Shown piece after piece: positions 2,017 through 55,792 of a stretch of 64,000 bases of DNA; position 1 is the stretch's first letter; each line of letters begins with the position of its first letter. Origin of the DNA: Thermoflavifilum aggregans (GTDB lineage: Bacteria; Bacteroidota; Bacteroidia; Chitinophagales; Chitinophagaceae); NCBI RefSeq assembly GCF_002797735.1, contig NZ_PGFG01000001.1, forward strand, positions 62,001 to 126,000. The letters run 5' to 3'. The position numbers and the translations under genes were made by a program. The notes under the pieces were generated by a model. That model was not told the DNA's origin, made no database searches, and saw nothing but the letters and a program-made list of their open reading frames with translations.

Positions 2017-4017
2017 CTACCAACCGTATACAATATTCACGAATGCATTTCTACCCATGCGGGGAACGCGGTTCCAGTCGGCATATGTTGTATAATTCTT
2101 ATCCAGGATGTTTTCCATGCCTATTTTCAAGGTTAACGGTTTCTTGCCGAGTTGGAAAGTTTTACCGGCTGAAATATTCACAATGGCATATCCAGACACA
2201 GGTTTTTCTCCATAATCCGCATTGTAGAACCAGGAATGGTTAGCTCCCTCCAAGCCCGCATGAACCTGATATCCCCTTTGTGACCACGATATGCCTGTGG
2301 AAAAGCTAAGCGGACGTTGGAAAGGCAGATAACCCAGGTTTTTTCCCGAACCTACAGACATTCCCAATTGAGCATTCCACAACCAAGCTTCGGCCACCTG
2401 TACTTGCAGGGTGGCTGTGCTGTTCCATTCAATAGCTTCCGGAAGTTGTTGGTATACCCTCACCCCAGCGGCTCCCATTGTCATGGGCTTTAAGGTACTA
2501 TCCACAAGGCCAATGATATAATTCAGCATATAAAAAACCCCCGTCTGCCAGGCAACAGAAATTTTTTCCCGGTAATAATGCAGTTGAACCTGCAAGTTCA
2601 CCGATTGTTCATTTTTCAGATTCGGATTTCCGATATAATCATAATTATCCATGCTGTTATACAGATACAGGCCGTAAGCCTCAGAAACGGTGGGTGGACG
2701 TTCTCCATATCCTACCTGTAAGGATGCTGTCCACGTATTTCCCCGTCGAAAAATTCCGAAATGGGATCGCTTTAGCCATCGTAGCTTGTTCAATGACTCG
2801 TTAGGATAAAACATTTTCAATTCCGATATGCCTCGCTGGTCATACACTTCGTTGTTGTGCAGGGTAAGCCCTGCCGAATATACATATTGCCAGCCTGCAT
2901 GCCCGGTAAGGCTATCCTGAATGTAGCCATCTATTTCTTCGATATGCACACCCGGCCAGGTAAGCATAAACATGGTTCTCTGCGGATTGTTTGCTGGGTA
3001 CATGGTCATCTCCGCAACCGAACGGTTCCAATGCCCATTAAGCTGTAACAACCAGTGATGGTGAGCGACTGTTTTCTCGATGCCGCTTATCCAGCCCGCT
3101 GTTTGGGTCCAGCCAGGCATATCCATGTACATAGAAATGCCGGAACGATGGGCATTATCCATCACGTGTTTCACTTCGTTAAAATAAATCCGGGTAGTCC
3201 ACAGATAAATACCTGGCCAGGGATGCTGTTGCCGGTAATTGACAGAAAAAATCTGCGCCCTGGCCAGCGACACATCCATAGGCAAGGCCGGATAACCTAA
3301 ATCGGTTGCCCGATCATAAATCCAGTTGAAACGCACTTGCCGTTGTGCATCTATTTGGTATCCGCCGCTTGCTGATACATTGTATTTGGTAAACTGGGAG
3401 GGAGAAATGATTTCTCCCCCACCAGCGTGATAATCTCCTGCATGGCGATAAGTCATATCTATATTCAGGTAGCTTCGGGGATCAATCCATGTAGCACCCA
3501 TACCTATCATTCGATGATGATTATTGGTTTCATATCCGCTAAATACGGATCCTTTAAACTGTGGTTCGCCAAAATCAGGATTGCTTAACACCATGTTCAA
3601 AGATCCTGATGATACAGGCCCATACCTAGATTGGCCATTGTGTATATCAGCTTTCTGTAGATTCATAATTTCCACATAGCTGGTTACTGGATCCATTTTA
3701 TCCGTACAAGCACCGTAAATCCTCATCCCATCAATTGTAATTACGGCTCTGTCGTCTGGCAATCCATCCAGATAAGGCAACCAGGCATAGGCCCCTCTTC
3801 TGATCATATGTACCGATGGCATTTGCTGCAAATATTCATCCATCGTTGATAGAGGCTTTTCGGCCTGTTGGGTTGGTTGTCGACTGGAAGTAATGACCAC
3901 TTCATTCAGCAATACCGGAGGCAGGCTATCTGAAGCAATTTTGCAAATGTTGCGAGCAGAACTTCCACCAGCATATAGCAGCGGAAGAAGAAGTATAGCC
4001 GCAAAACTATTTCTCAT
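2017..4017 (-). CDS. OprC/NosA-like TonB-dependent copper receptor
   Basis: A 666-residue outer-membrane receptor with a signal peptide, a plug domain (about residues 40-150) and a beta-barrel ending in an aromatic residue. The plug contains Cys104-Thr-Asp-Lys-Met108 (CxxxM) and the barrel contains His284-Val-Met286 (HxM). These match the copper site described for Pseudomonas OprC (from memory Cys143/Met147 and His323/Met325), including the same 176-residue spacing between the two halves. The HVMDN signature and the MDPVTSYV stretch after the Cys are also typical of TonB-copper receptors. There is no N-terminal carboxypeptidase-like domain, so it is not a SusC protein. It follows a His/Met-rich lipoprotein gene by 17 bases and is probably its operon partner. 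Copper import is inferred; substrate form is unknown. Confidence 0.85.
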   Translation of the reverse strand: MRNSFAAILLLPLLYAGGSSARNICKIASDSLPPVLLNEVVITSSRQPTQQAEKPLSTMDEYLQQMPSVHMIRRGAYAWLPYLDGLPDDRAVITIDGMRIYGACTDKMDPVTSYVEIMNLQKADIHNGQSRYGPVSSGSLNMVLSNPDFGEPQFKGSVFSGYETNNHHRMIGMGATWIDPRSYLNIDMTYRHAGDYHAGGGEIISPSQFTKYNVSASGGYQIDAQRQVRFNWIYDRATDLGYPALPMDVSLARAQIFSVNYRQQHPWPGIYLWTTRIYFNEVKHVMDNAHRSGISMYMDMPGWTQTAGWISGIEKTVAHHHWLLQLNGHWNRSVAEMTMYPANNPQRTMFMLTWPGVHIEEIDGYIQDSLTGHAGWQYVYSAGLTLHNNEVYDQRGISELKMFYPNESLNKLRWLKRSHFGIFRRGNTWTASLQVGYGERPPTVSEAYGLYLYNSMDNYDYIGNPNLKNEQSVNLQVQLHYYREKISVAWQTGVFYMLNYIIGLVDSTLKPMTMGAAGVRVYQQLPEAIEWNSTATLQVQVAEAWLWNAQLGMSVGSGKNLGYLPFQRPLSFSTGISWSQRGYQVHAGLEGANHSWFYNADYGEKPVSGYAIVNISAGKTFQLGKKPLTLKIGMENILDKNYTTYADWNRVPRMGRNAFVNIVYGW

Positions 4018-4034
4018 GACTTGTTGATGAAAGA

Positions 4035-4868
4035 TTAAAACTGAATTTCAAAATATATACTGCTGGCAGGGTTTTGATCGGTTACTGGTTCTCCTTTCAA
4101 TACATTACCGGCACTATTAACCAGCTGGAGATTGATTTTCCAATACCCGGTCATAGTCAGGTTTAACTGGCCGTGATACAAGCCATCCGTTCCCTCGGTA
4201 AGGGGCGTATTGTTTGGCGAACTGTGATTTCCCATGTCCGGCATGCGAGGATCTATCCGGATGGTATCGCTATCCACCGGCTCAAAATCATACATAGAAA
4301 CCATGGTATACAGAGCTGCTATCATTTCATTCATGCCTATCTTGGGCTTGGACGGAGCTACCAGGGCCAATACATATTTTTTCTGATCTGCACCTTGAAA
4401 GGTTACTACTCTGGTAAGTGACGATGGTTGAACCTGAAGCCGGCCAGTGAGAGTGTCCTGAACAGCACCCTGTGAAATAATCACAGAAAGTTCCCAGTAT
4501 TCAAGAGAATCACTGGGCATTTGAAATATCAGATACCCCTGGTAGTAATTACTTGCAGCAGATAATTCTGATGCCGGACAGCTATGCATCATGTTCATCA
4601 TATGCATGACAGGCTTCCACGCCACCTGATCAGGCCTTACAACATTTCCCGTTGCATCAAGTATCTGCAGTTCAATCTGATTATATCCGGTATATAACCG
4701 ACCATCCGATGTGTATAGCTTAACCTGATATTTTGTATCTGACATCGTGGTAGCCAATATACCCGCAGGCTGAGCTGGAGAAGTATTATTGTCTTTCTTA
4801 CAAGACGTGTATGACACAACCATCAGCAGAAAAATAGATACAGCTAAGGATATAGAATGAGTACGCAT
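4035..4868 (-). CDS. His/Met-rich lipoprotein with FixH/YtkA-like domains
   Basis: A 277-residue lipoprotein: hydrophobic leader with lipobox SYTSC (Cys23), then two beta-sandwich-like halves. The first half carries a dense metal-ligand stretch (Met88-His-Met-Met-Asn-Met-Met-His95 followed by Cys97). The second half (residues ~195-270) resembles the FixH/YtkA family, with PRMPDMGNHSSP and a closing GYWKINLQL strand. Met/His clusters of this kind bind Cu(I)/Cu(II) in periplasmic copper chaperones. It sits directly upstream of the copper-type receptor gene, so a role in delivering or accepting copper at the outer membrane is a reasonable inference. No biochemical family name fits the whole length. 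Confidence 0.75.
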   Translation of the reverse strand: MRTHSISLAVSIFLLMVVSYTSCKKDNNTSPAQPAGILATTMSDTKYQVKLYTSDGRLYTGYNQIELQILDATGNVVRPDQVAWKPVMHMMNMMHSCPASELSAASNYYQGYLIFQMPSDSLEYWELSVIISQGAVQDTLTGRLQVQPSSLTRVVTFQGADQKKYVLALVAPSKPKIGMNEMIAALYTMVSMYDFEPVDSDTIRIDPRMPDMGNHSSPNNTPLTEGTDGLYHGQLNLTMTGYWKINLQLVNSAGNVLKGEPVTDQNPASSIYFEIQF

Positions 4869-4917
4869 GTTCTTAATTTTTTAAAATAGGATGATGAAAG
4901 AATGAGTTTTAATGGTA

Positions 4918-5043
4918 TTACATTTTGCTTGCTTCAAAGCATCTACAAAAAATTTTATCCAGATTCATCAAAGAATTCTTTTGCCAGCTATGCACAATCA
5001 CATCATGCTTATCAACGTATGCACCTGATACATCATAACACAT
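4918..5043 (-). CDS. Possible 41-residue Cys/His micropeptide
   Basis: The 225-base gap between the lipoprotein gene and the small Cys protein contains an ATG-started frame of 41 codons plus stop. It encodes Cys at positions 2, 33 and 35 (CRC near the end) and two His residues. The same frame stays open further upstream, with two more Cys, into the 3' end of the preceding gene. A metal-binding micropeptide in a copper cluster would be plausible. It could equally be a chance frame or the remnant of a longer C-terminus lost by frameshift. No ribosome binding site is evident. Confidence 0.2.
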   Translation of the reverse strand: MCYDVSGAYVDKHDVIVHSWQKNSLMNLDKIFCRCFEASKM

Positions 5044-5093
5044 GATGAATGATGGCTGGCAGTAGTAATTGCACAATGGAACCGGATTTTCAC

Positions 5094-5456
5094 TCAGCTG
5101 ATAGGAGGGTGAAACACATTATCCAGCGAAGCTACCGGAAGAGATGATTTTAGTTCTGAAAAATGAATGGGAGAAGAATTGAATATGGGAAAAACAAAAG
5201 AGGCATGATCTGTGCAATAGTTAATGTCCAGTATATTTTTTTCAGAAGATCCATTGCTGGCATCTCGGTGCTGATCTTTCTCTAATTGTTTCTTCAAAAA
5301 ACATTTTCCGTTGCAATGAAGCTCAGGACGATCTCTGTTCACACAAAGATGCGTAGCAATATAGCGTATGTTGATCCTGTAATCCAGGATAATCACTCCC
5401 TTGCTGAAGGTCTGAAGCAGGATTGCCAATACCAATATAGCAGCTAACCCTCTCAT
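5094..5456 (-). CDS. Small membrane-anchored Cys-motif protein of the copper cluster
   Basis: A 120-residue protein with one N-terminal membrane or signal segment (residues ~3-24), then a conserved-looking motif His36-Leu-Cys38, His47-Cys48 and Cys52 in the context HCNGKCFLKKQLEK. The tail is Ser-rich and poorly structured. Short proteins with a Cys-x9-Cys-x3-Cys pattern of this type are, as I recall, often encoded beside TonB receptors in Bacteroidota, but no function is established. First gene of the minus-strand copper cluster. The Cys/His arrangement suggests metal binding or a redox role, which is inference. Confidence 0.65.
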   Translation of the reverse strand: MRGLAAILVLAILLQTFSKGVIILDYRINIRYIATHLCVNRDRPELHCNGKCFLKKQLEKDQHRDASNGSSEKNILDINYCTDHASFVFPIFNSSPIHFSELKSSLPVASLDNVFHPPIS

Positions 5457-5636: not shown

Positions 5637-6506
5637 ATGCCTACTTATCATTCAAATTCAGAACAAATCAAACACGTAATTCGGGAAGCTTTAAGAGAAG
5701 ACATAGGTGAAGGTGATCATAGCTCGCTTTGTTGTATACCCGCCTCACAAACAGGTACGGCCAATCTGATTAGCCAGGCATCTGGCATACTGGCAGGCAT
5801 ACGCATAGCACAAATCATTTTTGAAGAGCTGGATCCTGCCTGCAGAGTAATTGTCTTCAAACAGGACGGTGATCACATGCTGCCTGGTGAAAAAATCCTT
5901 CAAGTAACCGGACCCATGCGCAGCATTCTTTCTGCCGAACGGCTGGTGCTGAACTGCATGCAAAGAATGAGCGGCATTGCCACACTGACCCGAAAATATG
6001 TAGATCGTCTCGCCGGAAGCCACACCCGCCTGCTGGATACCCGGAAGACAACGCCCAACTTCCGGCTGTTGGAGAAAGAAGCCGTGCGGATAGGAGGTGG
6101 AGTAAACCACCGCATGGGATTGTATGACTACATCATGCTCAAAGACAATCATATCGATGCCTGCGGCGGTATACGCGAAGCTATCCGCCGGGCCAAAGCT
6201 TATGTGAAACAACACCAGCTGCAGCTGCCCATAGAGGTAGAAACCCGCAATCTCCAGCAAGTTGAGGAAGCCCTGGATGAAGGAGGCATGCAACGGATTA
6301 TGTTCGATCATTTTTCACCCGAAGAAGTCAGGCAGGCTGTGGCTTTGGTAAATGGTCGGTGTGAAACGGAGGCATCAGGCAATATAAATTTGGACAATAT
6401 GGCGGCCTATGCTGCTACCGGAGTGGATTTCATTTCTGTAGGAGCTATTACCCATCAGGCCGTAAGCCTGGATATGCATCTGAAATATCTTCGTACAGCC
6501 AGCTAA
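5637..6506 (+). CDS. nadC: Nicotinate-nucleotide pyrophosphorylase (carboxylating)
   Basis: A 289-residue quinolinate phosphoribosyltransferase, the usual family length. It converts quinolinate and PRPP to nicotinate mononucleotide, CO2 and pyrophosphate in de novo NAD synthesis. Family signatures are present in order: REDIGEGDHSS near the N-terminus, LNCMQRMSGIATLTR, the phosphate/quinolinate-binding LLDTRKTTPNFR, VRIGGGVNHRMGLYD, IMLKDNHI, the acidic IEVETRNL and ASGNINLDN with a closing GVDFISVGAITH. A promoter lies upstream and the lipid kinase gene follows closely. nadA and nadB are not in the window. Confidence 0.97.
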   Translation: MPTYHSNSEQIKHVIREALREDIGEGDHSSLCCIPASQTGTANLISQASGILAGIRIAQIIFEELDPACRVIVFKQDGDHMLPGEKILQVTGPMRSILSAERLVLNCMQRMSGIATLTRKYVDRLAGSHTRLLDTRKTTPNFRLLEKEAVRIGGGVNHRMGLYDYIMLKDNHIDACGGIREAIRRAKAYVKQHQLQLPIEVETRNLQQVEEALDEGGMQRIMFDHFSPEEVRQAVALVNGRCETEASGNINLDNMAAYAATGVDFISVGAITHQAVSLDMHLKYLRTAS

Positions 6507-34755: not shown

Positions 34756-35382
34756 ATGACAGCCGAACAAGATGCAGAGCTTATTCAACAGATTCTGGCA
34801 GGCGACAGGGAACAATATGCTCTGCTGATGCGAAAATACAATACCATGCTCTACCGCATCGGGCGGGCTTATGGTTTCACCGATGCCGATACCGAAGATA
34901 TCATGCAGGAAACTTTTATTCAGGCATATATGCAACTTCACCGGCTCCGCAGGCCCCGTGCTTTTCAGAAATGGCTAGCAACCATCATGGTCCGGATGTG
35001 CTATCAAGCGCAGCATCGGGCACGCCTGACCACATCCTGGGAGCAGGCTCCTGCTAGTTCCACATTTACCCCAAATATGGAAAACAGCGATCTCAAACAT
35101 TGGCTGGAACAAGCCATTCTGCAACTTCCGCAAGCCTACAGAATTGTGTTTGTGATGAAGGAGCTGAATGGATACAGTATCCGGCAGATTGCCCACATCA
35201 CGGGCATTTCTGTTATCAATGTAAAAGTAAGACTGTTCCGGGCCCGGCAAATGCTCCGGCAAATCCTCACGCAGGCTCAGGTAACGGATGAACTGCTGGC
35301 ATTCGAGGCCCCCCGTTGTGAAGCACTTGCAGATCGTGTGATGAAGGCCATCCGGGGGGCTTACCAGCAACTGCATGTTTAG
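34756..35382 (+). CDS. ECF-type RNA polymerase sigma factor
   Basis: A 208-residue sigma factor. Region 2 (~10-85) includes DTEDIMQETFIQAYMQLHRL and the AFQKWLATIMVRMCYQ segment; region 4 (~115-180) includes LPQAYRIVFVMKELNGYSIR and the helix-turn-helix IAHITGISVINVKVRLFRAR. Unlike the factor at 828-1409, no anti-sigma gene follows: the next gene is convergent and overlaps its last four bases. ATG at 34756 starts two bases after the cupredoxin stop. Control of envelope or copper stress genes is only an inference from its neighbours. Confidence 0.9.
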   Translation: MTAEQDAELIQQILAGDREQYALLMRKYNTMLYRIGRAYGFTDADTEDIMQETFIQAYMQLHRLRRPRAFQKWLATIMVRMCYQAQHRARLTTSWEQAPASSTFTPNMENSDLKHWLEQAILQLPQAYRIVFVMKELNGYSIRQIAHITGISVINVKVRLFRARQMLRQILTQAQVTDELLAFEAPRCEALADRVMKAIRGAYQQLHV

Positions 35383-38300
35383 CCTACCGGCACAGGATAG
35401 GCTTTTCTGCCCCACCACCAGTAAATCAGCAATAGCAGCAGGAACAACGGGGGAAACAGAGCTGTAAACTCCACCCATTTGCCACCGTAAAACCCTTTCA
35501 TGCCGCCGAGCTTGTATTTGATGAGATACATCACCGGCACCAGCACCAGTGTAAGGAATGTGGCAAAGGCAAGACCAAAAATCATCGTCCAGCACAGTGG
35601 ACTCCAGAAAGCTGCACTATCACCGCCGAAGAAAATATGAGGGTTCAGCTCCGTAAACATAGTGACAAAGTCAATATTCATCCCGAAGGCCAGGGGAATC
35701 AAACCCAGAATAGTAGCCGATGCTGTGAGCAATACCGGCGTCATACGCACCCTACCTGCCTCCACAAGTGCCTCGCGGATGGGCATGCCTTGCTCGATCA
35801 TCAGATCGGTAAACTCCACCAGCAATATACCATTGCGCACCACCACACCCGCCAGCGCCACCATGCCCACACCCGACATGACGATGGAAATATTCATCTT
35901 AAAAATGGAAACACCTATCAGCACCCCTATCAGGCTGAAGAACACCTCACTCATAATAATGAGCGGCTTGCTCAGCGAATTGAACTGGGTCACCAGAATT
36001 AGGAAAATCAATCCGATAGCCACCATCATGGCCGTGGATAGGAAGCTCATGGTTTCCTGCTGCTGCTCCTGATCACCGCCCATCCGTGCCGTAATACCCG
36101 ATGGGAAGGGGAATCGTTTTATGGCTTCAGCTACCTGATGCACCACCTGATTGGCATTATATCCGGTGAGGATGTTGGACGAAAGGGAGATGATGCGCTT
36201 CTGGTCCTTACGCCGGATGCCCCCGTAGGTGGTGGTATAACGGATATCGGCAAAAGCCGACAGGGGCACCTGGCGGATAATGCCGCCCATGGCCATATCC
36301 CGATAGGTAAAAGTAAGGTTGCGCAGCACATCCACATTGTCTCGCTGGTCGGGCAACAAACGCAGCTCAATGGGATAATCTTCATCGGCCCGGGGATCGC
36401 GGAACCGGCTTACTTCAGTACCAAAAACTGCCGTTCGTAAGGTTTGGCCGATCAGCCCGGAAGAAATACCGTTGCGGTTGGCCAGCTCCCGATCCACATC
36501 AAAGATCACTTCCGGTTTGTTGTTATGGAAATCAGATTCCAGATCTTCAATACCGCCGATATTTTGCTGTAGGATATAGGTACGCAACCGTTCCGATACT
36601 GCAATCAGTGAATCCAGATCATCGCCGGTAATTTCCACCACCAACGGCTTGGGAAGAGGAGGCCCACTCGCTTCCTTGTCCACCGTAATCTGTGCGGCGG
36701 GAATACCCCTGACGGCTTCCCGAATACGCGCCAGATAAGTCCAGGTAGATATCCCATGTCGTTCATTATAAGGCACAAAAGCTACTGTCACTTTCCCCTT
36801 GTTGGGCTGGGTGCCGAAGGCATCATCGCTGTTGGGATCGGCTGCACCCACAGCTACGTTGGAAATAACGGAGCTCACAACGGGATTATATTTCCCGTGA
36901 GCTGGATCAATACCCAGTACACTATCCACCCGGCGTTCCACCTCCAGCGTAACAGCATTGGTGGTTGCCTGATCGGTGCCAATAGGCATGGTGATGTACA
37001 CATACACAAAATTGGGATCGGGGCTGGGGAAAAACACTACCGGAGGTTTACGGATAGCGAAAAAAAGAACTGCAATAACAAAAAGTGCGGAAGTCCCCAA
37101 CACCAGTTTCACCGGATGTTCCAATGCGCGACGAAGCATACGTGTGTACCAGGCCTGAAAGCGTGGCCATAAGTCGTGCTGAAACCGATGTACCCAACGC
37201 TCCATCACCAGCCTGTACAACAAATGAATGGCAAGCATGGTGAGCGTGAAATTGCCCAGCCCGAATGCACCTTTGCTGCCGGCAAATATAGCTGCCAGAT
37301 AAAAGATCAATGCAATGGCTCCCATGATGATGGTAGTAACCGTCATGCCGCGGGTCCACTTGCCACGATGGGTACCCGCCGGATCATGTGGCTTCATGAA
37401 ATCAACCGCGAACACGGGATTGATGATATAAGCCACAAACAAGGAAGCCAGCAAAGTGGTAATCAACGTAACCGGTAAAAAGAACATGAATGAACCCACC
37501 ACTCCCTTCCAGAAAGCCAGGGGAATAAATGGAGCCAATGTGGTCAATGTGCCAGCAAGCACAGGCAGAAACACTTCTCCTGTAGCCATTTTGGCGGCCT
37601 GCCGGATATCCATTGCTCCATTGTTGAAAATGCGATGCGTATTCTCAATCACCACAATGGCATCATCAACCACAATACCCAATGCCAACAAGAAAGAAAA
37701 CAACACCACCATATTTAATGTAAATCCGTAAACCGGCATCAGCACAAAAGCCAAAAACATGGAAAGAGGCACGGACATTCCCACAAAAATGGCATTGGTA
37801 GCACCCATGAAAAACATGAGAATGACCGTCACCAGAATAAAACCGATGATGATGGTATTGATCAGGTCGTGTAGTGTAGTGCGGATCCTGTCGGATTGAT
37901 CGCCAGTAATCACTATTTTCAGATCTTTCGGAAAATTATGCTGCTGCATATCGGCAATCACTTCCCGCACATGATCCGACGCATCAATGAGATTGGCTCC
38001 GCTGCGTTTCACCACATTCAGGGTGATTACATTCTGGCCATCCAACCGCGCATAGCTTTCCTGCTCCTTGAAAGTATCAACAACCTGCGCAATGTTTTTC
38101 AAATACACTTCACCTCCCGTGGGCGTGCGGAGAATCAGATTCGCTACCTGTGAAGGATTGGTAAATTCCTGTTTGACCGTAAGGTCACGATCCACGCCAT
38201 CCATTTTTACATTACCTCCGGAAATAGTATGATTTTCATTGGCAATGGCCTGCTGAATATCACCGAAAGAAAGTTTGGCAGCAGTCATTTTATTCATATC

Positions 38301-38888
38301 CACATTCACCTGCAATTCCCTGTCAAGTGCACCCACTTCATCCACGCGGCTGATTTCAGGCAGGCTTTCAATTCTGTCTTTTAAATCATCCGCAAACTTT
38401 TTCAGCTTGCGCAAATCATAATTTCCGGAAATGTTTACATACAAAATAGGCAGGTCAGACAGGTTGATATCCAGTACATCCGGCGCCTGCGGCAGATCTT
38501 TTGGAAAATCAGTAGATGCCCTCGCTTTATCCACGGCATCTTTCACATCCTGCTTGGCTGTCTTGATATCCACATCTGTATTGAATTCAATCTTGACCAG
38601 CGAAAAATCCTGAAACGAATTGCTGGTGATATGCTTTACGCCCTTGATGGTTTTGCATTGTTTTTCAATTTCCTTGGTCACCAGCTTTTCCATGTTTTCC
38701 GGCGATGTGCCGGGATAAGTGGTAGTTACATAAATGGTAGGAATGGTGATTTCAGGAAATTGTTCCTTAGGCAGGCTGATATAGGCAAAAATACCGGCCA
38801 GCGTGAGAATGATGGTAAACAAATAAATGCTGGTGCGATGATCAATTGCCCAACTCGATGGCTTAAACTCTTTGAAAATATCTTTCAT
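35379..38888 (-). CDS. RND efflux pump, inner-membrane permease
   Basis: A 1169-residue AcrB-type protein, longer than AcrB by more than 100 residues. It has a large insert or extra span after the first helix bundle (~530-600, an Ala/Ile-rich region) and a hydrophobic C-terminal tail. Twelve or more membrane spans and two periplasmic porter domains are evident. Helix 4 carries the proton-relay pair Asp-Asp in LALGIVVDDAIVVIENTHR, and the second half has the GVVVRNGILLVEF motif. It belongs to the HAE-type multidrug family. It is the last gene of a tetR-tolC-adaptor-pump operon. The substrate is unknown. Confidence 0.93.
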   Translation of the reverse strand: MKDIFKEFKPSSWAIDHRTSIYLFTIILTLAGIFAYISLPKEQFPEITIPTIYVTTTYPGTSPENMEKLVTKEIEKQCKTIKGVKHITSNSFQDFSLVKIEFNTDVDIKTAKQDVKDAVDKARASTDFPKDLPQAPDVLDINLSDLPILYVNISGNYDLRKLKKFADDLKDRIESLPEISRVDEVGALDRELQVNVDMNKMTAAKLSFGDIQQAIANENHTISGGNVKMDGVDRDLTVKQEFTNPSQVANLILRTPTGGEVYLKNIAQVVDTFKEQESYARLDGQNVITLNVVKRSGANLIDASDHVREVIADMQQHNFPKDLKIVITGDQSDRIRTTLHDLINTIIIGFILVTVILMFFMGATNAIFVGMSVPLSMFLAFVLMPVYGFTLNMVVLFSFLLALGIVVDDAIVVIENTHRIFNNGAMDIRQAAKMATGEVFLPVLAGTLTTLAPFIPLAFWKGVVGSFMFFLPVTLITTLLASLFVAYIINPVFAVDFMKPHDPAGTHRGKWTRGMTVTTIIMGAIALIFYLAAIFAGSKGAFGLGNFTLTMLAIHLLYRLVMERWVHRFQHDLWPRFQAWYTRMLRRALEHPVKLVLGTSALFVIAVLFFAIRKPPVVFFPSPDPNFVYVYITMPIGTDQATTNAVTLEVERRVDSVLGIDPAHGKYNPVVSSVISNVAVGAADPNSDDAFGTQPNKGKVTVAFVPYNERHGISTWTYLARIREAVRGIPAAQITVDKEASGPPLPKPLVVEITGDDLDSLIAVSERLRTYILQQNIGGIEDLESDFHNNKPEVIFDVDRELANRNGISSGLIGQTLRTAVFGTEVSRFRDPRADEDYPIELRLLPDQRDNVDVLRNLTFTYRDMAMGGIIRQVPLSAFADIRYTTTYGGIRRKDQKRIISLSSNILTGYNANQVVHQVAEAIKRFPFPSGITARMGGDQEQQQETMSFLSTAMMVAIGLIFLILVTQFNSLSKPLIIMSEVFFSLIGVLIGVSIFKMNISIVMSGVGMVALAGVVVRNGILLVEFTDLMIEQGMPIREALVEAGRVRMTPVLLTASATILGLIPLAFGMNIDFVTMFTELNPHIFFGGDSAAFWSPLCWTMIFGLAFATFLTLVLVPVMYLIKYKLGGMKGFYGGKWVEFTALFPPLFLLLLLIYWWWGRKAYPVPVG

Positions 38889-39020
38889 GTGAATATCATT
38901 TAAGCTTTAGGTATCAACTGACAGGTATGTACAAAATGCATGTTTCCTGATGCTGCATATTGATCGTGAGATTGCAACAAAACATTTCTGATGATTTGCA
39001 GAGTAAACAAACCATGCCCA

Positions 39021-40178
39021 TCACTGCACAATCTGAACAGGTACATGATCGGCTAGATCCTGATAACCGTTGATAATGAGCGTATCGCCTGGTTTTAATC
39101 CCTGCAATACTTCCACGCGATCGTTATATGTTTTTCCTTTGGTAATCTTCACTTCTTTTGCATAATTATCTTCAGCAACAAACACATAATCACCTGTTTC
39201 GGTATGTTGCACCACATTTACCGGTACCACAATGGCCTGAGGGTTTACATAACTTACCACCCGAATCACTGCTACCATGTTCGGCCGGAAAATGGAATGT
39301 GCAGGTAATTTGATTTCAATGTTGAATGAACGGCTGTTGGGATCAATCACACTCGACACATAACTCAAGCGGGTGTGCAGGGTATCGGATGCATCTGGGA
39401 AAATCACTTCCACCGGATCGCCCTGATGAACCTGTCCAATGTAACTTTCTGCAATCTGCCCCTTGACCCGCAGATCATTTAAATTCACCACCCGAATGGT
39501 ATTCATGCCGGGTGAAACAGCCTGGCCTATCTTCAGATCCACTTCATCAACCCTGCCATCAATAGGAGACACTAAGCGATACATGGAAAGTTGTGATTGC
39601 ACAACGGCTATTTGCTTTTGTACATTTTCATAATTGTTTTTGGCTTGCAGCAGTTGTACTTCAGTTCCTATTTTTTGTGCCCAGAGATTTTTCTGGCGTT
39701 CATACAGGTTTTTGGTAAAATCAAGTTGTGTTTCCAGTTGTGCCAGTTGCTGGCGAATCACTTTATCATCCAGCTGCGCCAATACCTGTCCTCTCTTTAC
39801 CCATTGACCCACCTGCACGTAAATAGCTGTTACCACACCCGAAATTTCGGGGTTGACATTTACGTTTTGCTGTGCATCCACATGTCCCTGCACTTCAATA
39901 TAAGTTTTGAATACTTCCGGACTCAGCCGGATAACCGATACAGAAACAACTTTTTGTTGCGCGGGTGCTATGGATTGTTGCAATGCTTGAATTTCCTGAT
40001 TGATGCGATCGCGTTCCTGCAGCAACTTCTGGAGCTTTTCCTGGTTAGATGCCTGCTTGTCAGTACGTGCATTGCATGCAGGAAGAACAATCATAGCCAT
40101 AGCTATGCATCCGAAACCTATCAGGCTAACGGAAAATGATCTGGATATCATACCAAACATTTTTTGCGTGAAAATCAT
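39021..40178 (-). CDS. RND efflux periplasmic adaptor (membrane fusion protein)
   Basis: A 385-residue adaptor with a lipoprotein signal (lipobox LPAC). A coiled-coil Lys/Gln-rich segment precedes the lipoyl-type domain (GVVTAIYVQVGQWVKRGQVL), followed by the alpha-hairpin (YERQKNLWAQKIGTEVQLLQ), the second lipoyl half (SPIDGRVDEVDLKIGQAV) and the beta-barrel/MP domains. It bridges the RND pump and the outer-membrane channel. The 132-base gap to the pump gene shows no feature of note. Several Met codons precede the signal, so the exact start is uncertain. Confidence 0.92.
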   Translation of the reverse strand: MIFTQKMFGMISRSFSVSLIGFGCIAMAMIVLPACNARTDKQASNQEKLQKLLQERDRINQEIQALQQSIAPAQQKVVSVSVIRLSPEVFKTYIEVQGHVDAQQNVNVNPEISGVVTAIYVQVGQWVKRGQVLAQLDDKVIRQQLAQLETQLDFTKNLYERQKNLWAQKIGTEVQLLQAKNNYENVQKQIAVVQSQLSMYRLVSPIDGRVDEVDLKIGQAVSPGMNTIRVVNLNDLRVKGQIAESYIGQVHQGDPVEVIFPDASDTLHTRLSYVSSVIDPNSRSFNIEIKLPAHSIFRPNMVAVIRVVSYVNPQAIVVPVNVVQHTETGDYVFVAEDNYAKEVKITKGKTYNDRVEVLQGLKPGDTLIINGYQDLADHVPVQIVQ

Positions 40179-40184
40179 AAAACA

Positions 40185-41588
40185 TCAGAGTTTACCTATA
40201 GCTTTCAAATAATCAATTTTAGCGAGCATGGCATTGTATAAAGCAGTATAGTAATTCAGTTGCGCCTGCTGCAGATCCCCTTCTGCATTGTTGATTTCAA
40301 TGGTGGAACCTACGCCGGCTTCATATTTCTTAATCGTTTGCTCATAAACTTCCTGAGCCAGCTCCATGTTTTTCTGCTGGGATGCTACATTCAGCAGGTA
40401 ATTACTCAGGTTGGTTCTTGCCTGCTGCAACTCCAACTGCATGCTTTGATCGAGTAATTCAAGCTGCAGCTGTGATTTCTGCACATTCAGCTTTGCCTGA
40501 TCAATCCGGTATTTTTTCTGCAAACCTTCAAACAAAGGAACAGATAAATTCAAGCCTACATAAAAAGTCTTAAACCAGGGTTGATCATGATCAAAAAAGT
40601 TGAATGATGTACGTGCTGCATTGATACCATAACTGGCATTGGCTGAAAGAGAGGGTAGCCAGGCAAGCTGATAACGCTTCAGATCAAATTGATTTGCTTT
40701 CAGCTGGGTTTGCAGTGTTTGATAATCTATGCGCTGATGCAGATCCACCTCTTCATCCTGCAGCAAATCACTTTTTACATCATCAAAACCCAATGAATCC
40801 GTGAGCTGCAGGCTGTCCTGCAAAGGCATCCCTATCTGAAATTTCAGGAGCTGATCGCTTAGGGTTACCATGTTTTGCATTTCCGTTTCTTGAGATTTTA
40901 AATTATTGAGCTGCACCTGCAGGCGATCCACATCCAGCTTTTCCGCAAATCCATTCTGATACATCACACGGGTGTCGTGCAGCAGTTTTTCCAAACGTGC
41001 AATATTGTCTTTTACTACCTGCAGCTGCTTGCGTGCAATCCATACATTGTAATAGGCTTTGGAAACCGTGACTTTCAGATCCCGTTCCGTACGTTTTACA
41101 TTCTTGCGCGCCAGCTCCAGAATGGTTTCCCTGGCCTGCAAGGCTACAAATACACTGGGATCAAACAGTGTTTGCGATGCATTTAAACTGGTGTTTAAAT
41201 TATACTGCGTACCAAATTGCACAGGGGTAAGTCCTGCCTGCGGGACAGGTTTATTCTGCGGAATCAGGTTTTCTTGTTTCAGAATTGCATAAACGGCCGG
41301 TGAAAAGAAATCAGGAAACAAAGTGGTGGGCAGTTTTAAATAATCCTGAAACTGCCCGCTGGCCGTTACCCTGGGCAATGCCAGACCCGTAACTTCCTTT
41401 TCCTTAGCTTCAGTAATTTTTGCATCAATCTTTGCAGATTGAAGATTCAGTTCATGTGCAATGGCATAAGCAATGCAATCATCCAGTGAAAAACGATGAA
41501 CGACATGAAGGCTGTCTTGTGCACGAACTGCAGGATGGCACAAGATGCATATACACACAATGGCCCAGCGAATGACAATCCGATTCAT
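40185..41588 (-). CDS. TolC-family outer-membrane efflux channel
   Basis: A 467-residue outer-membrane factor with a signal peptide. It shows the duplicated TolC pattern: long amphipathic helices (LDDCIAYAIAHELNLQSAKI near the start; FSLDDC motif) and barrel strands, with the Tyr-rich repeat LNYYTALYNAMLAKIDYLKA at the end. Its start overlaps the tetR stop by four bases, and its stop is six bases from the adaptor ORF. It forms the exit duct of the efflux pump. Confidence 0.92.
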   Translation of the reverse strand: MNRIVIRWAIVCICILCHPAVRAQDSLHVVHRFSLDDCIAYAIAHELNLQSAKIDAKITEAKEKEVTGLALPRVTASGQFQDYLKLPTTLFPDFFSPAVYAILKQENLIPQNKPVPQAGLTPVQFGTQYNLNTSLNASQTLFDPSVFVALQARETILELARKNVKRTERDLKVTVSKAYYNVWIARKQLQVVKDNIARLEKLLHDTRVMYQNGFAEKLDVDRLQVQLNNLKSQETEMQNMVTLSDQLLKFQIGMPLQDSLQLTDSLGFDDVKSDLLQDEEVDLHQRIDYQTLQTQLKANQFDLKRYQLAWLPSLSANASYGINAARTSFNFFDHDQPWFKTFYVGLNLSVPLFEGLQKKYRIDQAKLNVQKSQLQLELLDQSMQLELQQARTNLSNYLLNVASQQKNMELAQEVYEQTIKKYEAGVGSTIEINNAEGDLQQAQLNYYTALYNAMLAKIDYLKAIGKL

Positions 41589-42253
41589 AACATATTGTTT
41601 GATTGCTCACCAAATTGTTGCTGATATTGTTGAATCAACTGATGTCCCTTGATAGTGGAAATACCATACAGGTAATGCAGCATCAATTCATGTTGTACTT
41701 CATGCAAGGGAAACTGGTCTTTCGGAAAAATATCCTGACGAAGCGGCAACAATCCAGATTCCAGCCTGAACCTGGCTATGACTTCTATTTTCAGATCTGC
41801 CCGATAATTTCCTTCCTGGATGCCTCTTTGCAGATTGTGGATGATAAGTTGTTTGATATAGGTCTGCTGATGCTGATCGAAAAGCATGAATGCATCGGGG
41901 TGATAACGCTGCATTTCAGCAAACACTACAGGATTCAGATTACGGAAAATGCCATCCAGGTACTGAAACATGCGAAAGGTTTCATGAATGGCATCGCGTG
42001 CATCTGCGCGGATCAGCTCGCACTGAGCCTGCATTTCTTCGATGAATCGCTTCACAACCATGCGCACCAGCTCGTTTTTATCGCGAAACAGCTGGTACAA
42101 GGTACGTTTGGACATGCCCAGGTGACGGGCAATTTCATCTACCGTCATGGTGCGCAACCCGTAAGTCTGAAACAGGCGCTGGCTCACACTGAGCACCCGC
42201 TCCATGGCTTCGGCATGCACTTCGCGTACGGGTGGTATCTGCTTTTTAGTCAT
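41585..42253 (-). CDS. TetR-family transcriptional regulator of the efflux operon
   Basis: A 222-residue repressor. The N-terminal helix-turn-helix is clear (LFQTYGLRTMTVDEIARHLG then MSKRTLYQLFRDKNELV); the C-terminal ligand-binding part (~70-222) is not similar to any group I can name. It heads the efflux operon and is coupled to tolC by an ATGA overlap. An inverted repeat covering the promoter's -33 box just upstream is a good operator candidate, so it most likely represses itself and the pump until a toxic ligand binds. Confidence 0.93.
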   Translation of the reverse strand: MTKKQIPPVREVHAEAMERVLSVSQRLFQTYGLRTMTVDEIARHLGMSKRTLYQLFRDKNELVRMVVKRFIEEMQAQCELIRADARDAIHETFRMFQYLDGIFRNLNPVVFAEMQRYHPDAFMLFDQHQQTYIKQLIIHNLQRGIQEGNYRADLKIEVIARFRLESGLLPLRQDIFPKDQFPLHEVQHELMLHYLYGISTIKGHQLIQQYQQQFGEQSNNML

Positions 42254-50758: not shown

Positions 50759-51793
50759 TCAGTATGCCCAGAGATTTTGTTCCCAATCGAAGATTTCATT
50801 TTTGATTTTTTCACCTTCCAGCAAGGCACGGATTCCATTTTTCTCATAATCCTTGATGGTGCGATCGAATACATTATCTTCCTTCACTACAAAGGCATGG
50901 AAATATCGCATTTCAAAAACATCTTCCCAGCTCATGCGCATCATGTAGTTGTTCGGATTGTACACATCATACCTTGCCAGAATGGGGCGCAAATCAGGAT
51001 AATAAAGCCAGAACAAGGGGGTCATGGCACGCAGCGATCCATCGGGATTATAAATAGCCTTCAGGGGCGCAATGCCCAGAATCCGTACATAAAGCTGGGA
51101 AGTTTGTTTGTCGAATACCCAATCTTCCTTGATGCGATAACGGGTTACAATATGCGGATCAAATTCATGTTGCACAATCTGAACTGTTTCTTTTCCTGTA
51201 ATGGGATCTACTACACGGATGGTATCGGGTTTACCTACCAGTTCACTTTTAACTTCATCGATACTCATGGGTGTGGTAAAGCGGTCATCTATAGGATTAA
51301 ATGCCACCACCTCGCTGTCGAGAATGGCTTTCAGCAGAATGCTGATCAGATCGTAGCTTCCGCCCTCGCCGGCATAAGCAAACGGCAGGTTGATTTTTTC
51401 ATGAACATCGATTTCTTCCCATAACCGGTGGCCCCATACGGCATCATCCTCGCGAATATACTGGTAGGCCAAAGGTGTGCGGTCCTTGATGAGATTGCGT
51501 ACCACCACATTGTCATTGCGGAGTGGGGTTTTTGGATTTTCCAGATCGCCGAAAATATTATCTGGTCGCTGAGGGGCAGCCTGGGGGCGGGTTGTATCCA
51601 CGGCTGGCGGATTAATCACATTGCCTGTAGCCGGATTCACAATATTGTTGTTTGCCGGCTGAGTCTGTACAGCCCCTGTGGTGGCTCTGCGGCGGCGGGT
51701 CGTGGTCCGGGTAGCCTGGGCAGAGAGTTCAGTGGTTACCCAGCAAATCAATAGTACCCAGATAGCGAAAATCCGAACAACATGATTTTTCAT
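50759..51793 (-). CDS. gldN: Gliding motility/T9SS protein GldN
   Basis: A 344-residue exported protein: signal peptide ending LSAQ, a low-complexity Arg/Thr/Asn/Pro-rich stretch (~30-90), then the conserved GldN/PorN domain. Recognisable parts are DAVWGHRLWEEIDVHEKINLP, VTRYRIKEDWVFDKQTSQLY and NNYMMRMSWEDVFEMRYFH. GldN joins GldK in a periplasmic ring under the outer membrane and contacts GldM, completing the T9SS core. It starts 22 bases after gldM and is the last of gldK-L-M-N. Confidence 0.96.
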   Translation of the reverse strand: MKNHVVRIFAIWVLLICWVTTELSAQATRTTTRRRRATTGAVQTQPANNNIVNPATGNVINPPAVDTTRPQAAPQRPDNIFGDLENPKTPLRNDNVVVRNLIKDRTPLAYQYIREDDAVWGHRLWEEIDVHEKINLPFAYAGEGGSYDLISILLKAILDSEVVAFNPIDDRFTTPMSIDEVKSELVGKPDTIRVVDPITGKETVQIVQHEFDPHIVTRYRIKEDWVFDKQTSQLYVRILGIAPLKAIYNPDGSLRAMTPLFWLYYPDLRPILARYDVYNPNNYMMRMSWEDVFEMRYFHAFVVKEDNVFDRTIKDYEKNGIRALLEGEKIKNEIFDWEQNLWAY

Positions 51794-51815
51794 ATGACTG
51801 GATTTTTGAGCATGA

Positions 51816-53348
51816 TCAATTTAGTTTAAAGGAAATCGGTGGCAGCAGACGGGTGGTTCCGTCGGGTCCGCGGGCATGGATATTATCAATGAATACCCGT
51901 GTACCAGGCCTGCACCGTTGGATATATCTTTCAATTTCTTCCGTAAAATAGGCTGAATTGGAGCTGGCTTCAATATAATCTGAAAATCCAGCGCCATCAA
52001 AACCAATCGTGAAGCTAGTTACCACAAACTTGGCATCGAAATCAAAATTTTCCAGTACGGCTGCCACTCCTTTCTGCACCTTGAAAACAGCTGCACTGAG
52101 GGTGCCCCCTTTGCTGCCGGCCACTTCTGCAACAGGATCAGGGATACGTTTGGTACGGAATTCCATGCTTCCCATAGACCGTACCTGCCCGTCAAATTCA
52201 GCACTGACATTAACGGTAACCGTACCCACAGCCGATACGCGTGCAATATATTTACCCGGCCCTGATTTGGTGAGGCTTCCGGGGCCGGAAATGGTAGCAC
52301 TTACTTTTTCAGCCGGCACGCCTGCCACAGCTACTGAAATCGGATTATCCACACCAATGTACAGCACATTCATTTTATCGGCTGAAACCGACACAGCCGG
52401 TGCACCAACCATGTATTCTGCCGTAGCCGTGTAAGTCTTTATTTGTCCGCTCTGATCCTTCAGGCTGATGGCCACATTATAGGTGTGCAGGCCCACGCCC
52501 GAAGCTACCGTAGAAAATGTGCCTACTCCGTTCTGCACGGGAATGGGTTGACCATTCACGGTGATGGTGGGATTGATGGTGGAACTATATGCTCCCAGCA
52601 TAATCTGGGCCTCATACTTTTGTCCGGCTATCACATAGCCGGCATTAGCTGAAATCAAGGGTTTGTAGGTGTCGAACACAAATTCCTGCTGTCCGATTTT
52701 TTTAAACAAATCATCAATTACCTGCGCTTCCGAATTTTTTACATCATTCTGGATTTTGCTTAAAATGGTAATGGCCGCTATGGTAGGCACCATTTCAAAA
52801 TTTACCTGTGTCCAGGTTTTCTTGTTATCAATTGTTTTTTTAGGCATTTCTATTTTCAGGGGTAAAATCTGCGCCACCTGTTCACGTTCTACAGGATTGT
52901 CGTACATGCTGAGCAGCTGCTCTCTCAGGGTTTCGATTTTTTTCTCTAAAATAGATCCCTGGCCTTGATTTTCCATGACCCGTGAAGGAGCATCGAGGTT
53001 TGACATGTCTTTGATTTCGCCGCTGTCGTTTAATCCTCCGCTTTCGCGGATAATTACTTTTTTCAGGCTGTCGATATACAGATTCATTTGCTCACACAGT
53101 ATTTTCACCTGATCAGCTTTTTCCTTGATTGGCCTCACTCTTTCCGGATCAATGCTGAGTTGTTTTTCAAACTGCTGATATACCAGGTTGTTTTTTTGTG
53201 TAATGGCATTGTTTGAATTGGTGATGCTTTCATTGACTGTTTTGAATGCATTCAGAATTTCAGCCGATACATTGAGTGCAAGCATAGCCATCAGCACCAG
53301 ATACATCAGGTTTATCATCTTTTGCCGGGGCTCTTTGGGTAGTGCCAT
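51816..53348 (-). CDS. gldM: Gliding motility/T9SS protein GldM
   Basis: A 510-residue protein with one N-terminal membrane span (KMINLMYLVLMAMLALNVSAEILNAF, residues ~10-35), then periplasmic domains. The first is helical (~36-220, with NSNNAITQKNNLV and EQMNLYIDSLKK), followed by beta-sandwich domains (~225-510). With GldL it forms the inner-membrane motor that turns proton flow into rotation and drives the ring above. Length and the position between gldL and gldN are as expected. Confidence 0.97.
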   Translation of the reverse strand: MALPKEPRQKMINLMYLVLMAMLALNVSAEILNAFKTVNESITNSNNAITQKNNLVYQQFEKQLSIDPERVRPIKEKADQVKILCEQMNLYIDSLKKVIIRESGGLNDSGEIKDMSNLDAPSRVMENQGQGSILEKKIETLREQLLSMYDNPVEREQVAQILPLKIEMPKKTIDNKKTWTQVNFEMVPTIAAITILSKIQNDVKNSEAQVIDDLFKKIGQQEFVFDTYKPLISANAGYVIAGQKYEAQIMLGAYSSTINPTITVNGQPIPVQNGVGTFSTVASGVGLHTYNVAISLKDQSGQIKTYTATAEYMVGAPAVSVSADKMNVLYIGVDNPISVAVAGVPAEKVSATISGPGSLTKSGPGKYIARVSAVGTVTVNVSAEFDGQVRSMGSMEFRTKRIPDPVAEVAGSKGGTLSAAVFKVQKGVAAVLENFDFDAKFVVTSFTIGFDGAGFSDYIEASSNSAYFTEEIERYIQRCRPGTRVFIDNIHARGPDGTTRLLPPISFKLN

Positions 53349-53420
53349 TGCGTAAAACTTTTGAAATCAGGTAAACAAACTCACATCATTTGCAAAACCT
53401 GCCTGCAGGCAGGTTACGAA

Positions 53421-55585: not shown

Positions 55586-55612
55586 AAGGGTATGTTTAAT
55601 TTGAGCAGCTAA

Positions 55613-55641
55613 CAATGTACATGTTTTATGTTTTCCATCAA
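55613..55641 (-). promoter_or_regulatory. Candidate promoter of gldKLMN
   Basis: On the minus strand TTG (55641-55639) and TACATTG (55619-55613) are 19 bases apart; the -7 element has one base fewer than the TAnnTTTG consensus. It lies 27 bases upstream of the gldK start in the 301-base gap after hemD. Confidence 0.35.
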
Positions 55642-55792
55642 TTGTTTTTGAACCTTTTCTCCCCGCATCACAAAGCACGGGTTTTACATAACGACAGGCC
55701 GGGTCAAATATTGTTTTAAATGTATAAATTAATCTTTGAAACCCTTTAAAATTTCCATGGGTTTTATCGATACCGGTACGTCCGTGAAAACG

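What the first reader, a model, noticed from the sequence alone, without database searches (positions are those of the whole stretch)
2017..5456. Copper import cluster with an OprC-like site in a Bacteroidota receptor
The receptor has Cys104-x3-Met108 and His284-x-Met286. The 176-residue spacing equals that of the OprC copper site as I recall it. The next gene encodes a lipoprotein with an eight-residue Met/His run. A small Cys protein completes the cluster. This looks like a dedicated outer-membrane copper uptake system whose inner-membrane route is not in the window.
Basis: partly seen in the sequence, partly recalled or inferred. Interest (0 to 1): 0.55.

Follow-up and report, generated by a model that had tools for sequence, protein, structure and literature searches.

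The report
Bacteroidota outer-membrane copper uptake operon
Three neighbouring genes look like a dedicated system by which some common bacteria pull scarce copper through their outer membrane, using a receptor distantly related to one known from Pseudomonas plus a probable copper-grabbing surface partner, sometimes next to the gene for the copper enzyme that destroys the greenhouse gas nitrous oxide.

Summary
The 666-aa receptor carries C104-x3-M108 and H284-x-M286, aligned with OprC's copper ligands; OprC is the only family its profile finds among PDB sequences (E up to 1e-5). The equal 176 spacing is coincidence: it varies among relatives. The cluster is a conserved operon: in the 80 best related loci the lipoprotein gene is there in 80, the Cys protein in 79. 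The four ligands and eight more methionines are invariant in 88 receptors (the scan's patterns contained three of these residues).

The lipoprotein is two YtkA/CrdA-like domains, each with a near-invariant Met/Met/His plus Met plus Trp, like known Cu(I) sites; 68 of 82 family members examined carry an acidic surface-export-like signal, the window's only in part. I read the pair as a two-part copper receptor laid out like BtuB-BtuG. nosZ is within 10 kb in 25 of 80 loci; in one genome both genes lie inside the nos operon; the host has nosZ elsewhere.

Structure prediction did not settle whether the ligands meet. Cargo, surface exposure and transport are untested. A Bacteroidota CxxxM-HxM receptor is already published (PMC11213822); my searches listed no paper on the operon, partner or nos link.

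The parts
5094..5456 (-). small Cys protein, 120 aa: N-terminal hydrophobic segment (about residues 3-24), then LC-N-x-x-x-P-x-x-HCNGKC-x-L-K, C-terminal FHPP
   Evidence: family alignment A6; C38/C48/C52 in 86 of 86; no Pfam/NCBIfam family
5301..5315 (-). CNGKC motif (C48-C52) of the Cys protein
4035..4868 (-). lipoprotein, 277 aa, two YtkA/CrdA-like domains (about 36-150 and 152-277)
   Evidence: Pfam YtkA E 6.1e-14, two stretches; AF2 pLDDT 94.3; CrdA Z 12.2 over 36-146, CrdA E 0.0016 over profile positions 204-263; domain-domain P 1.9e-6
4800..4802 (-). lipidated Cys23 (predicted), followed by KKDNNT (partial surface-export-like signal)
   Evidence: C23 in 85 of 87; the other two (L025, L062) lack the N-terminus in my ORF calls
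4584..4607 (-). predicted Cu(I) site 1: M88, M90, M93, H95 (with M117, W125)
4224..4244 (-). predicted Cu(I) site 2: M209, M212, H215 (with M239, W243)
   Evidence: 87 of 87
2017..4017 (-). OprC-like TonB-dependent receptor, 666 aa
3889..3906 (-). probable TonB box NEVVIT (residues 38-43)
   Evidence: read from the sequence; L-x-E-V in the A4 consensus; assignment inferred
3694..3708 (-). C104-x3-M108, plug half of the copper site
   Evidence: 88 of 88 (both residues were in the scan's patterns); aligned to OprC C143/M147
3277..3279 (-). M247, aligned with OprC track residue M286
3160..3168 (-). H284-x-M286, barrel half of the copper site
   Evidence: 88 of 88, not in the scan's patterns; aligned to OprC H323/M325
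3118..3126 (-). M298 and M300, aligned with OprC track residues M339 and M341
3001..3009 (-). M337 and M339, extra methionines
   Evidence: 88 of 88; the set of six is incomplete in 22 of 23 receptors without the lipoprotein
2965..2973 (-). M349 and M351, extra methionines
   Evidence: 88 of 88; as above

Best explanation
A three-gene copper-acquisition operon. Proposed path: the lipid-anchored two-domain lipoprotein, held on the outer face of the outer membrane, captures Cu(I) at two Met/Met/His(+Trp) sites; it hands copper to a track of methionines of the receptor (M298, M300, M337, M339, M349, M351, M247); copper drops into the C104/M108/H284/M286 site between plug and barrel, placed as in OprC; TonB opens the plug and copper enters the periplasm; the small Cys protein, anchored in the inner membrane with its C-x-G-x-C facing the periplasm, receives it or relays it to NosL/Sco-type chaperones for NosZ and CuA. 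Shown: the conserved operon, the aligned and invariant ligands, homology to OprC and to YtkA/CrdA, nos linkage. Inferred: copper as cargo, Cu(I) binding, surface position, hand-over, TonB drive, role and place of the Cys protein.
For: OprC is the only solved-structure family found by sequence: E 6.7e-12 with the single sequence (list to E 0.01), 5.7e-32 with the profile over 50-665 (list to 1e-5); best structural match Z 29.9. C/M/H/M in 88 of 88 and in 17 of 23 further receptors taken from profile hits or Cys-family loci, not from motif scans. M247, M298, M300 align with OprC silver-binding Met286, Met339, Met341. Lipoprotein gene in 80 of 80 and Cys protein gene in 79 of 80 of the best loci; in 296 genomes, 34 of 35 with a receptor hit of 350 bits or more also hold the lipoprotein. 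Lipoprotein N-terminal domain matches the copper protein CrdA, Z 12.2 against 8.5 for the next row. At least 2 acidic residues at +2 to +7 after the lipobox Cys in 68 of 82 family members, against 2 of 23 NosL and 0 of 27 NosZ. Receptor and lipoprotein inside a nos operon between nosL and nosD (L108); nosZ within 10 kb in 25 of 80 loci. The Cys family also sits beside MbnP-MbnH and SCO1 genes.
Against: No experiment. TIGR01778 (TonB-copper) scores 82.9 bits against a cut-off of 472. The structural match to the zinc receptor ZnuD (Z 29.3) is tied with OprC. The plug is not modelled. The window's own lipoprotein has only one acidic residue after the Cys (KKDNNT), and cytochrome c lipoproteins score 11 of 23 on the same test. 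The link between the six methionines and the lipoprotein rests on one clade of the tree, so on one event; G011 has the methionines without the lipoprotein, and G219, a strong receptor hit, also lacks it. G001 of the same genus has nosZ without receptor and lipoprotein. In this genome nos is about 0.9 Mb away. Even for NosA, one cited knockout report found no change in NosZ activity or copper (PMC8610252, passage). Efflux-pump parts neighbour the operon in some loci (11 of 80, named by eye).
Confidence: 0.68

Rival explanations
1. Same copper uptake receptor, but the lipoprotein faces the periplasm and acts after transport as a chaperone towards NosZ/CuA, as YtkA (CtaK) is thought to do for CuA assembly in Bacillus.
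For: YtkA domains are implicated in CuA assembly (PMC13344008, passages); the window lipoprotein has a weak export signal; the genes lie between nosL and nosD in L108.
Against: 68 of 82 family members pass the acidic-signal test, NosL (2 of 23) and NosZ (0 of 27) mostly do not, though the nos cytochrome c passes in 11 of 23; presence of the lipoprotein coincides with extra methionines in the receptor.
Confidence: 0.3
2. The receptor takes up a copper-metallophore complex, not ionic copper.
For: Many TonB-dependent receptors take chelates (established knowledge); genes like the methanobactin partners MbnP-MbnH co-occur with the Cys family.
Against: Protein-derived soft ligands aligned with those of OprC, which binds bare copper (PMC8610252, passages); no metallophore biosynthesis cluster was recognised among the window ORFs scanned with Pfam; none was looked for elsewhere in the genome.
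Confidence: 0.12
3. Copper defence: the operon sequesters or exports excess copper.
For: CrdA is named a copper resistance determinant (PMC9182242, passages); an RND pump whose adaptor matches PF16576 (CusB/HlyD barrel-sandwich) lies about 30 kb away in the window; RND pump parts neighbour the operon in 11 of 80 loci (by eye), and a heavy-metal-type P-type ATPase neighbours the Cys family in L126.
Against: The receptor is of an importer family; the most frequent recognisable neighbours are nos genes (25 of 80 with nosZ).
Confidence: 0.06
4. Another metal (zinc, silver-like or nickel) is the cargo.
For: ZnuD ties with OprC in structure.
Against: Cys/Met/His/Met ligands and methionine tracks are soft; the profile search at 1e-5 listed OprC only.
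Confidence: 0.05

Closest known systems
OprC (Pseudomonas aeruginosa) / NosA (P. stutzeri), TonB-dependent copper receptors
   Same: Plug-barrel receptor; aligned Cys/Met/His/Met site; three of five silver-binding track methionines; NosA was tied to N2O reductase, though a later report disputes it (passage); here the tie is gene linkage
   Different: 15-16% identity in the structural alignment; under the TIGR01778 cut-off; comes with a lipoprotein and extra methionines; the passages of PMC8610252 that I saw mention no such partner
Bizionia argentinensis TBDT G2EC70 (PMC11213822)
   Same: Bacteroidota receptor with CxxxM-HxM proposed for copper uptake (passages)
   Different: Its table lists P-type ATPase, CcoG and NosL with nearby locus tags; the passages I saw do not describe the lipoprotein or the Cys protein
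BtuB-BtuG / SusC-SusD of Bacteroides
   Same: Receptor plus lipoprotein encoded together; BtuB-BtuG structures appear in the fold list
   Different: Cargo would be a metal ion; the lipoprotein is YtkA/CrdA-like by sequence and fold, not SusD or BtuG
CrdA (Helicobacter pylori), YtkA/CtaK, CusF
   Same: CrdA fold and Met cluster; Met2His site type of CusF (as described in PMC9182242; that CusF has a Trp is recalled)
   Different: Two tandem domains, lipid anchor, His and Trp added; CrdA has no His
MbnP-MbnH copper proteins
   Same: Same small Cys protein family encoded beside them
   Different: No OprC-like receptor seen in the stretches of those loci that I read

Membership tests
TonB-dependent copper receptor (TIGR01778, OprC/NosA equivalog) | score over the curated cut-off (472.45 bits) | tested here: not met
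   82.9 bits
TonB-dependent copper receptor (TIGR01778, OprC/NosA equivalog) | CxxxM-HxM site at aligned positions | tested here: met
TonB-dependent copper receptor (TIGR01778, OprC/NosA equivalog) | some methionine-track residues conserved (the criterion used for NosA in PMC8610252) | tested here: met
   M247, M298, M300 aligned; M343 and M348 of OprC have no Met counterpart
TonB-dependent copper receptor (TIGR01778, OprC/NosA equivalog) | four ligands close in space | tested here: inconclusive
   plug residues 69-112 pLDDT under 50; no coordinates available
TonB-dependent copper receptor (TIGR01778, OprC/NosA equivalog) | binds and imports copper | not testable with these tools
   needs protein and cells
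ZnuD-type zinc receptor (NF038289) | score over the curated cut-off (950 bits) | tested here: not met
   13.5 bits
ZnuD-type zinc receptor (NF038289) | fold | tested here: inconclusive
   Z 29.3, tied with OprC 29.9
SusCD/BtuBG-type two-part receptor | receptor and lipoprotein encoded together | tested here: met
   80 of 80 loci
SusCD/BtuBG-type two-part receptor | lipoprotein surface-export signal | tested here: inconclusive
   68 of 82 in the family; window protein KKDNNT only partial; cytochrome c control 11 of 23
SusCD/BtuBG-type two-part receptor | lipoprotein sits as a lid on the receptor | not testable with these tools
   no prediction of complexes offered
YtkA-like (PF13115) | over gathering score | tested here: met
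   52.9 bits against 25.9
CrdA copper protein | fold | tested here: met
   Z 12.2, 104 residues, rmsd 2.5; sequence profile E 0.0016
CrdA copper protein | copper binding | not testable with these tools
   needs protein

The most novel reading that the evidence does not exclude
The first two-part outer-membrane receptor for a bare metal ion: a surface lipoprotein with two CusF/CrdA-like Cu(I) sites feeds a methionine-tracked OprC-like receptor, completed by an inner-membrane Cys relay, so that Cu(I) passes from the cell surface to N2O reductase without free copper and without entering the cytoplasm; a widespread Bacteroidota speciality. ('First' rests on my paper searches only.)
Probability: 0.35. 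Interest if true: 0.72.

Novelty: new variant of a known kind. Interest (0 to 1): 0.52.

Why it matters
How Gram-negative bacteria take copper through the outer membrane has been studied in only a few cases (abstract starts of PMC8610252 and PMC11836926). Many Bacteroidota carry N2O reductase (99 of 296 sampled genomes over the cut-off), and each NosZ needs several copper ions (established knowledge); a copper uptake system encoded in or beside some of their nos operons would say when that sink for a greenhouse gas works. It also gives testable partners: a lipoprotein that can be assayed for Cu(I), a receptor with point mutants, and a natural subfamily that has Gly in place of the key Cys.

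Tried and rejected
Exact 176 spacing as evidence: rejected, varies among relatives. Structure prediction to bring the four ligands together: inconclusive, plug not modelled. The viral-contig scan with the Cys protein confirmed no relative. A copper importer elsewhere in the window: no Pfam model named for it in 40 further ORFs; smaller and overlapping ORFs were not scanned. Hidden small ORF between the Cys and lipoprotein genes: only frame 1 was translated and has stops; the gap is only 82 bases in L017, so a conserved gene there is unlikely. Rfam at gathering scores and ARAGORN: nothing in the window. Promoter and terminator scan: 7 sites against 10.8 expected and 4 against 3.1, so uninformative. 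Co-occurrence of the Cys family with nosZ: none (38 of 116 with, 61 of 180 without), so the Cys family is general and not nos-specific. Cys family with receptor in the 296 genomes: weak (36 of 75 against 80 of 221, p 0.08). All Fisher tests ignore relatedness. Seven small proteins upstream of receptors without a Cys-family hit (L152, L156, L158, L160, L161, L163, L164) match no Pfam family; the one in L153 is DUF6448. Literature: searches gave listings (none); no listed title or abstract start concerned this operon, but most subscription papers are not held. Papers seen in passages only: PMC8610252, PMC11213822, PMC7477175, PMC5080379, PMC13344008, PMC9182242.
Full report
Observation. The three genes are as described: Cys protein 5094-5456, lipoprotein 4035-4868 and receptor 2017-4017, all on the minus strand, gaps 225 and 17 bases. 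They are bounded by the convergent DUF4783 gene 1602-2006 and the divergent nadC 5637-6506, so they can form one transcript (inferred). C104, M108, H284 and M286 are present; the only other Cys, C25, lies in or just after the probable signal peptide. The M108-H284 spacing equals OprC's, but in 88 sequences the C104-H284 distance is 182 in 73 and 180 only here. The equality is chance; the correspondence is shown by alignment.

Receptor. A single-sequence search of PDB sequences lists only OprC chains to E 0.01 (best 6.7e-12, residues 41-301). A 50-row profile lists only OprC at 1e-5, best 5.7e-32, over 50-665. Both alignments pair C104/M108/H284/M286 with OprC 143/147/323/325, and M247, M298, M300 with OprC Met286, Met339, Met341, which bind silver in the crystal (PMC8610252, passages). 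TIGR01778 is the best NCBIfam hit but far under its cut-off (82.9 against 472 bits), so I do not file it as that equivalog. The predicted model has a good barrel (mean pLDDT of the whole 76.4) but a plug under 50 at 69-112; VIA-align gives OprC Z 29.9 (rmsd 3.0, 575 aligned) and ZnuD Z 29.3, a tie.

Conservation and bias. With the window and the 7 receptors first found in relatives this gives 88 sequences. All have C104, M108, H284, M286 and also M98, M247, M298, M300, M337, M339, M349, M351. The scan's two peptide patterns contain M98, C104 and M108, so these are favoured by the search; the other residues are not. Of 23 further receptors, 20 lower-scoring profile hits chosen by hand plus L108, L109 and L130, the four ligands are complete in 17; five have Gly for Cys (motif AGPARMDSP) and one lacks the site.

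Operon. Of the 80 loci, 80 hold the lipoprotein and 79 the Cys protein, on the receptor's strand; the one miss, L062, begins close to the receptor. Order is Cys-lipoprotein-receptor in 55 and Cys-receptor-lipoprotein in 24. Among the 7 near-relative receptors 6 have the full set and L022 has not. In a sample of 296 phylum genomes, 75 have the receptor (E up to 1e-30), 37 the lipoprotein (1e-10) and 116 the Cys family (0.001); 35 have receptor and lipoprotein, 2 the lipoprotein alone, and of the 35 with a receptor hit of 350 bits or more, 34 have the lipoprotein, against 3 of the other 261 genomes. The own genome has one copy of the receptor (E up to 0.001).

Lipoprotein. Pfam YtkA, two stretches. 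The model is confident (pLDDT 94.3). Its first domain matches H. pylori CrdA, Z 12.2, 104 residues, rmsd 2.5, next row Z 8.5; by sequence CrdA matches the second domain, E 0.0016. The two domains resemble each other (hhalign P 1.9e-6, 77 columns, 21% identity). Invariant in 87 of 87: M90, H95, M117, W125 and M209, M212, H215, M239, W243; M88 in 86 and M93 in 79. So each domain offers two or three Met and one His plus a later Met and a Trp. CrdA's Met cluster is a proposed Cu(I) site and CusF uses Met2His (PMC9182242, passages); that CusF also has a Trp is recalled. YtkA domains support copper loading of CuA in Bacillus (PMC13344008, passages). No coordinates were available, so I could not check that these residues meet.

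Surface signal. Surface lipoproteins of Bacteroidota carry acidic residues just after the lipidated Cys: K-(D/E)2, SDDDD, SDDFE (PMC5080379, passages). With a simple lipobox rule, 68 of 82 lipoproteins of this family have two or more acidic residues at +2 to +7; NosL 2 of 23, NosZ 0 of 27, the nos cytochrome c 11 of 23. The rule found no lipobox in 5 of 87 family members, the window's among them, in 11 of 34 NosL, 8 of 35 NosZ and 3 of 26 cytochromes, and in some it plainly took the wrong Cys. The window protein reads CKKDNN, a partial signal. Surface exposure is likely for the family, less sure for this protein.

Methionines and partner. Six methionines (298, 300, 337, 339, 349, 351) are all present in 8 of 8 receptors with the lipoprotein and in 1 of 23 without. 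The tree puts the lipoprotein-bearing receptors, with L022, on one side of one starred branch, so this is one evolutionary event, suggestive and not independent proof. Genome G011 (L022) has the methionines and no lipoprotein, and G219 has a strong receptor hit and no lipoprotein. That the six lie in outside loops is inferred from OprC.

nos linkage. 46 of 75 receptor genomes have nosZ over cut-off, against 53 of 221 without the receptor; for the 35 strong hits it is 19 of 35 against 80 of 261 (not corrected for relatedness). Twelve of the 46 have nosZ within 13 kb on the same contig; distances are for 19 pairs picked by eye. Nine of the twelve belong to genomes with the lipoprotein. In the 80 loci nosZ lies 1.1 to 9.6 kb away in 25. 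In G095 the order is cytochrome c, nosZ, a conserved membrane gene, nosL, lipoprotein, receptor, nosD, nosF, nosY (L108; NosZ and NosD by NCBIfam, NosL and NosD by Pfam, the rest by similarity to the host's cluster). The Cys family was not found there. The host genome has nosZ (931 bits) at C1:971712-973514 with nosD, two clear heme-copper oxidases and a third place just over the cut-off (35.5 bits), and one copper-type P-type ATPase over the cut-off. NosZ and CuA are loaded in the periplasm (established knowledge), so a receptor without an inner-membrane importer would be enough for them; other sites may need more, since copper loading often relies on import into the cytosol (PMC13344008, start of abstract).

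Cys protein. No named family. It has an N-terminal hydrophobic segment without lipobox, so I infer an inner-membrane anchor. In 20 loci of the family that I chose for lacking a strong receptor hit, I read its neighbours as MbnP-MbnH-like genes in 6 (two confirmed by Pfam), a larger TonB-dependent receptor in 10, SCO1 in 2 (both confirmed), an OprC-like receptor in 1; in one my ORF calls gave no Cys protein. The ORF just upstream of 17 of 22 lower-scoring receptors has C-x-[GS]-x-C, against 121 of 795 ORFs of 80-200 aa (the background includes the family itself, and L109 and L130 were partly chosen for it). It looks like a general copper-side partner; it shows no association with nosZ.

Against a pure uptake reading: parts of RND pumps neighbour the operon in 11 of 80 loci (by eye), the window has an RND pump whose adaptor matches a CusB/HlyD model, and a P-type ATPase neighbours the Cys family in L126.

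Prior work. A CxxxM-HxM receptor in Bizionia argentinensis was reported in 2024 as a possible copper importer (PMC11213822, passages). OprC was described as conserved in many Proteobacteria (PMC8610252 abstract). The flavobacterial nosZ-L-D-F-Y order is described for Kordia, with no word of a copper receptor in the passages I saw (PMC7477175). In ten full-text searches I saw no listing on the operon, the lipoprotein or the nos link. Verdict: a new variant of a known kind, expected in its receptor, new in its partner and setting.

Noticed in passing
L103 9074-16613 (G000:C1 about 971073-978612), also L106: The nos gene cluster sits inside the ribosomal-protein region, between the EF-G gene (after S12 and S7) and the S10 gene, in two species of the genus (gene names read by eye; NosZ and NosD of L103 confirmed).
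   Followed up: partly
L160, L161, L162, L163, L164: A receptor subfamily with Gly in place of the copper-site Cys (AGPARMDSP) but Met, His and Met kept; in L162 it is followed by SCO1 and PCuAC genes.
   Followed up: partly
L104 9634-13703 (G000:C1:369633 onwards): A second Cys-protein paralog in the host, followed by a 763-aa TonB-dependent receptor with a CarboxypepD_reg domain and a BNR-repeat protein; a similar module lies beside nos genes in L124.
   Followed up: partly
L127 6638-10151; L121 3695-7046: The Cys family beside MbnP and MbnH-like genes plus a protein of about 300 aa with an early C-x-x-C-x-C; the one in L127 matches no Pfam family.
   Followed up: partly
window 5637-6506; L107 5278-6210: nadC is the divergent neighbour here; genes that look like nadB and nadA (named by eye) neighbour the operon in 20 and 18 of 80 loci. 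Shared regulation or mere synteny.
   Followed up: no
L111 6359-8450: The lipoprotein family without a receptor hit in the genome, next to an HMA-domain protein; that genome has nosZ.
   Followed up: no
window 50759-54239: GldL-GldM-GldN (type IX secretion / gliding) genes, with an FGE-like protein at 54299-55678.
   Followed up: no
window 35379-42253: RND pump, membrane-fusion protein (PF16576, CusB/HlyD type), outer-membrane efflux protein and a TetR regulator; specificity not examined.
   Followed up: no
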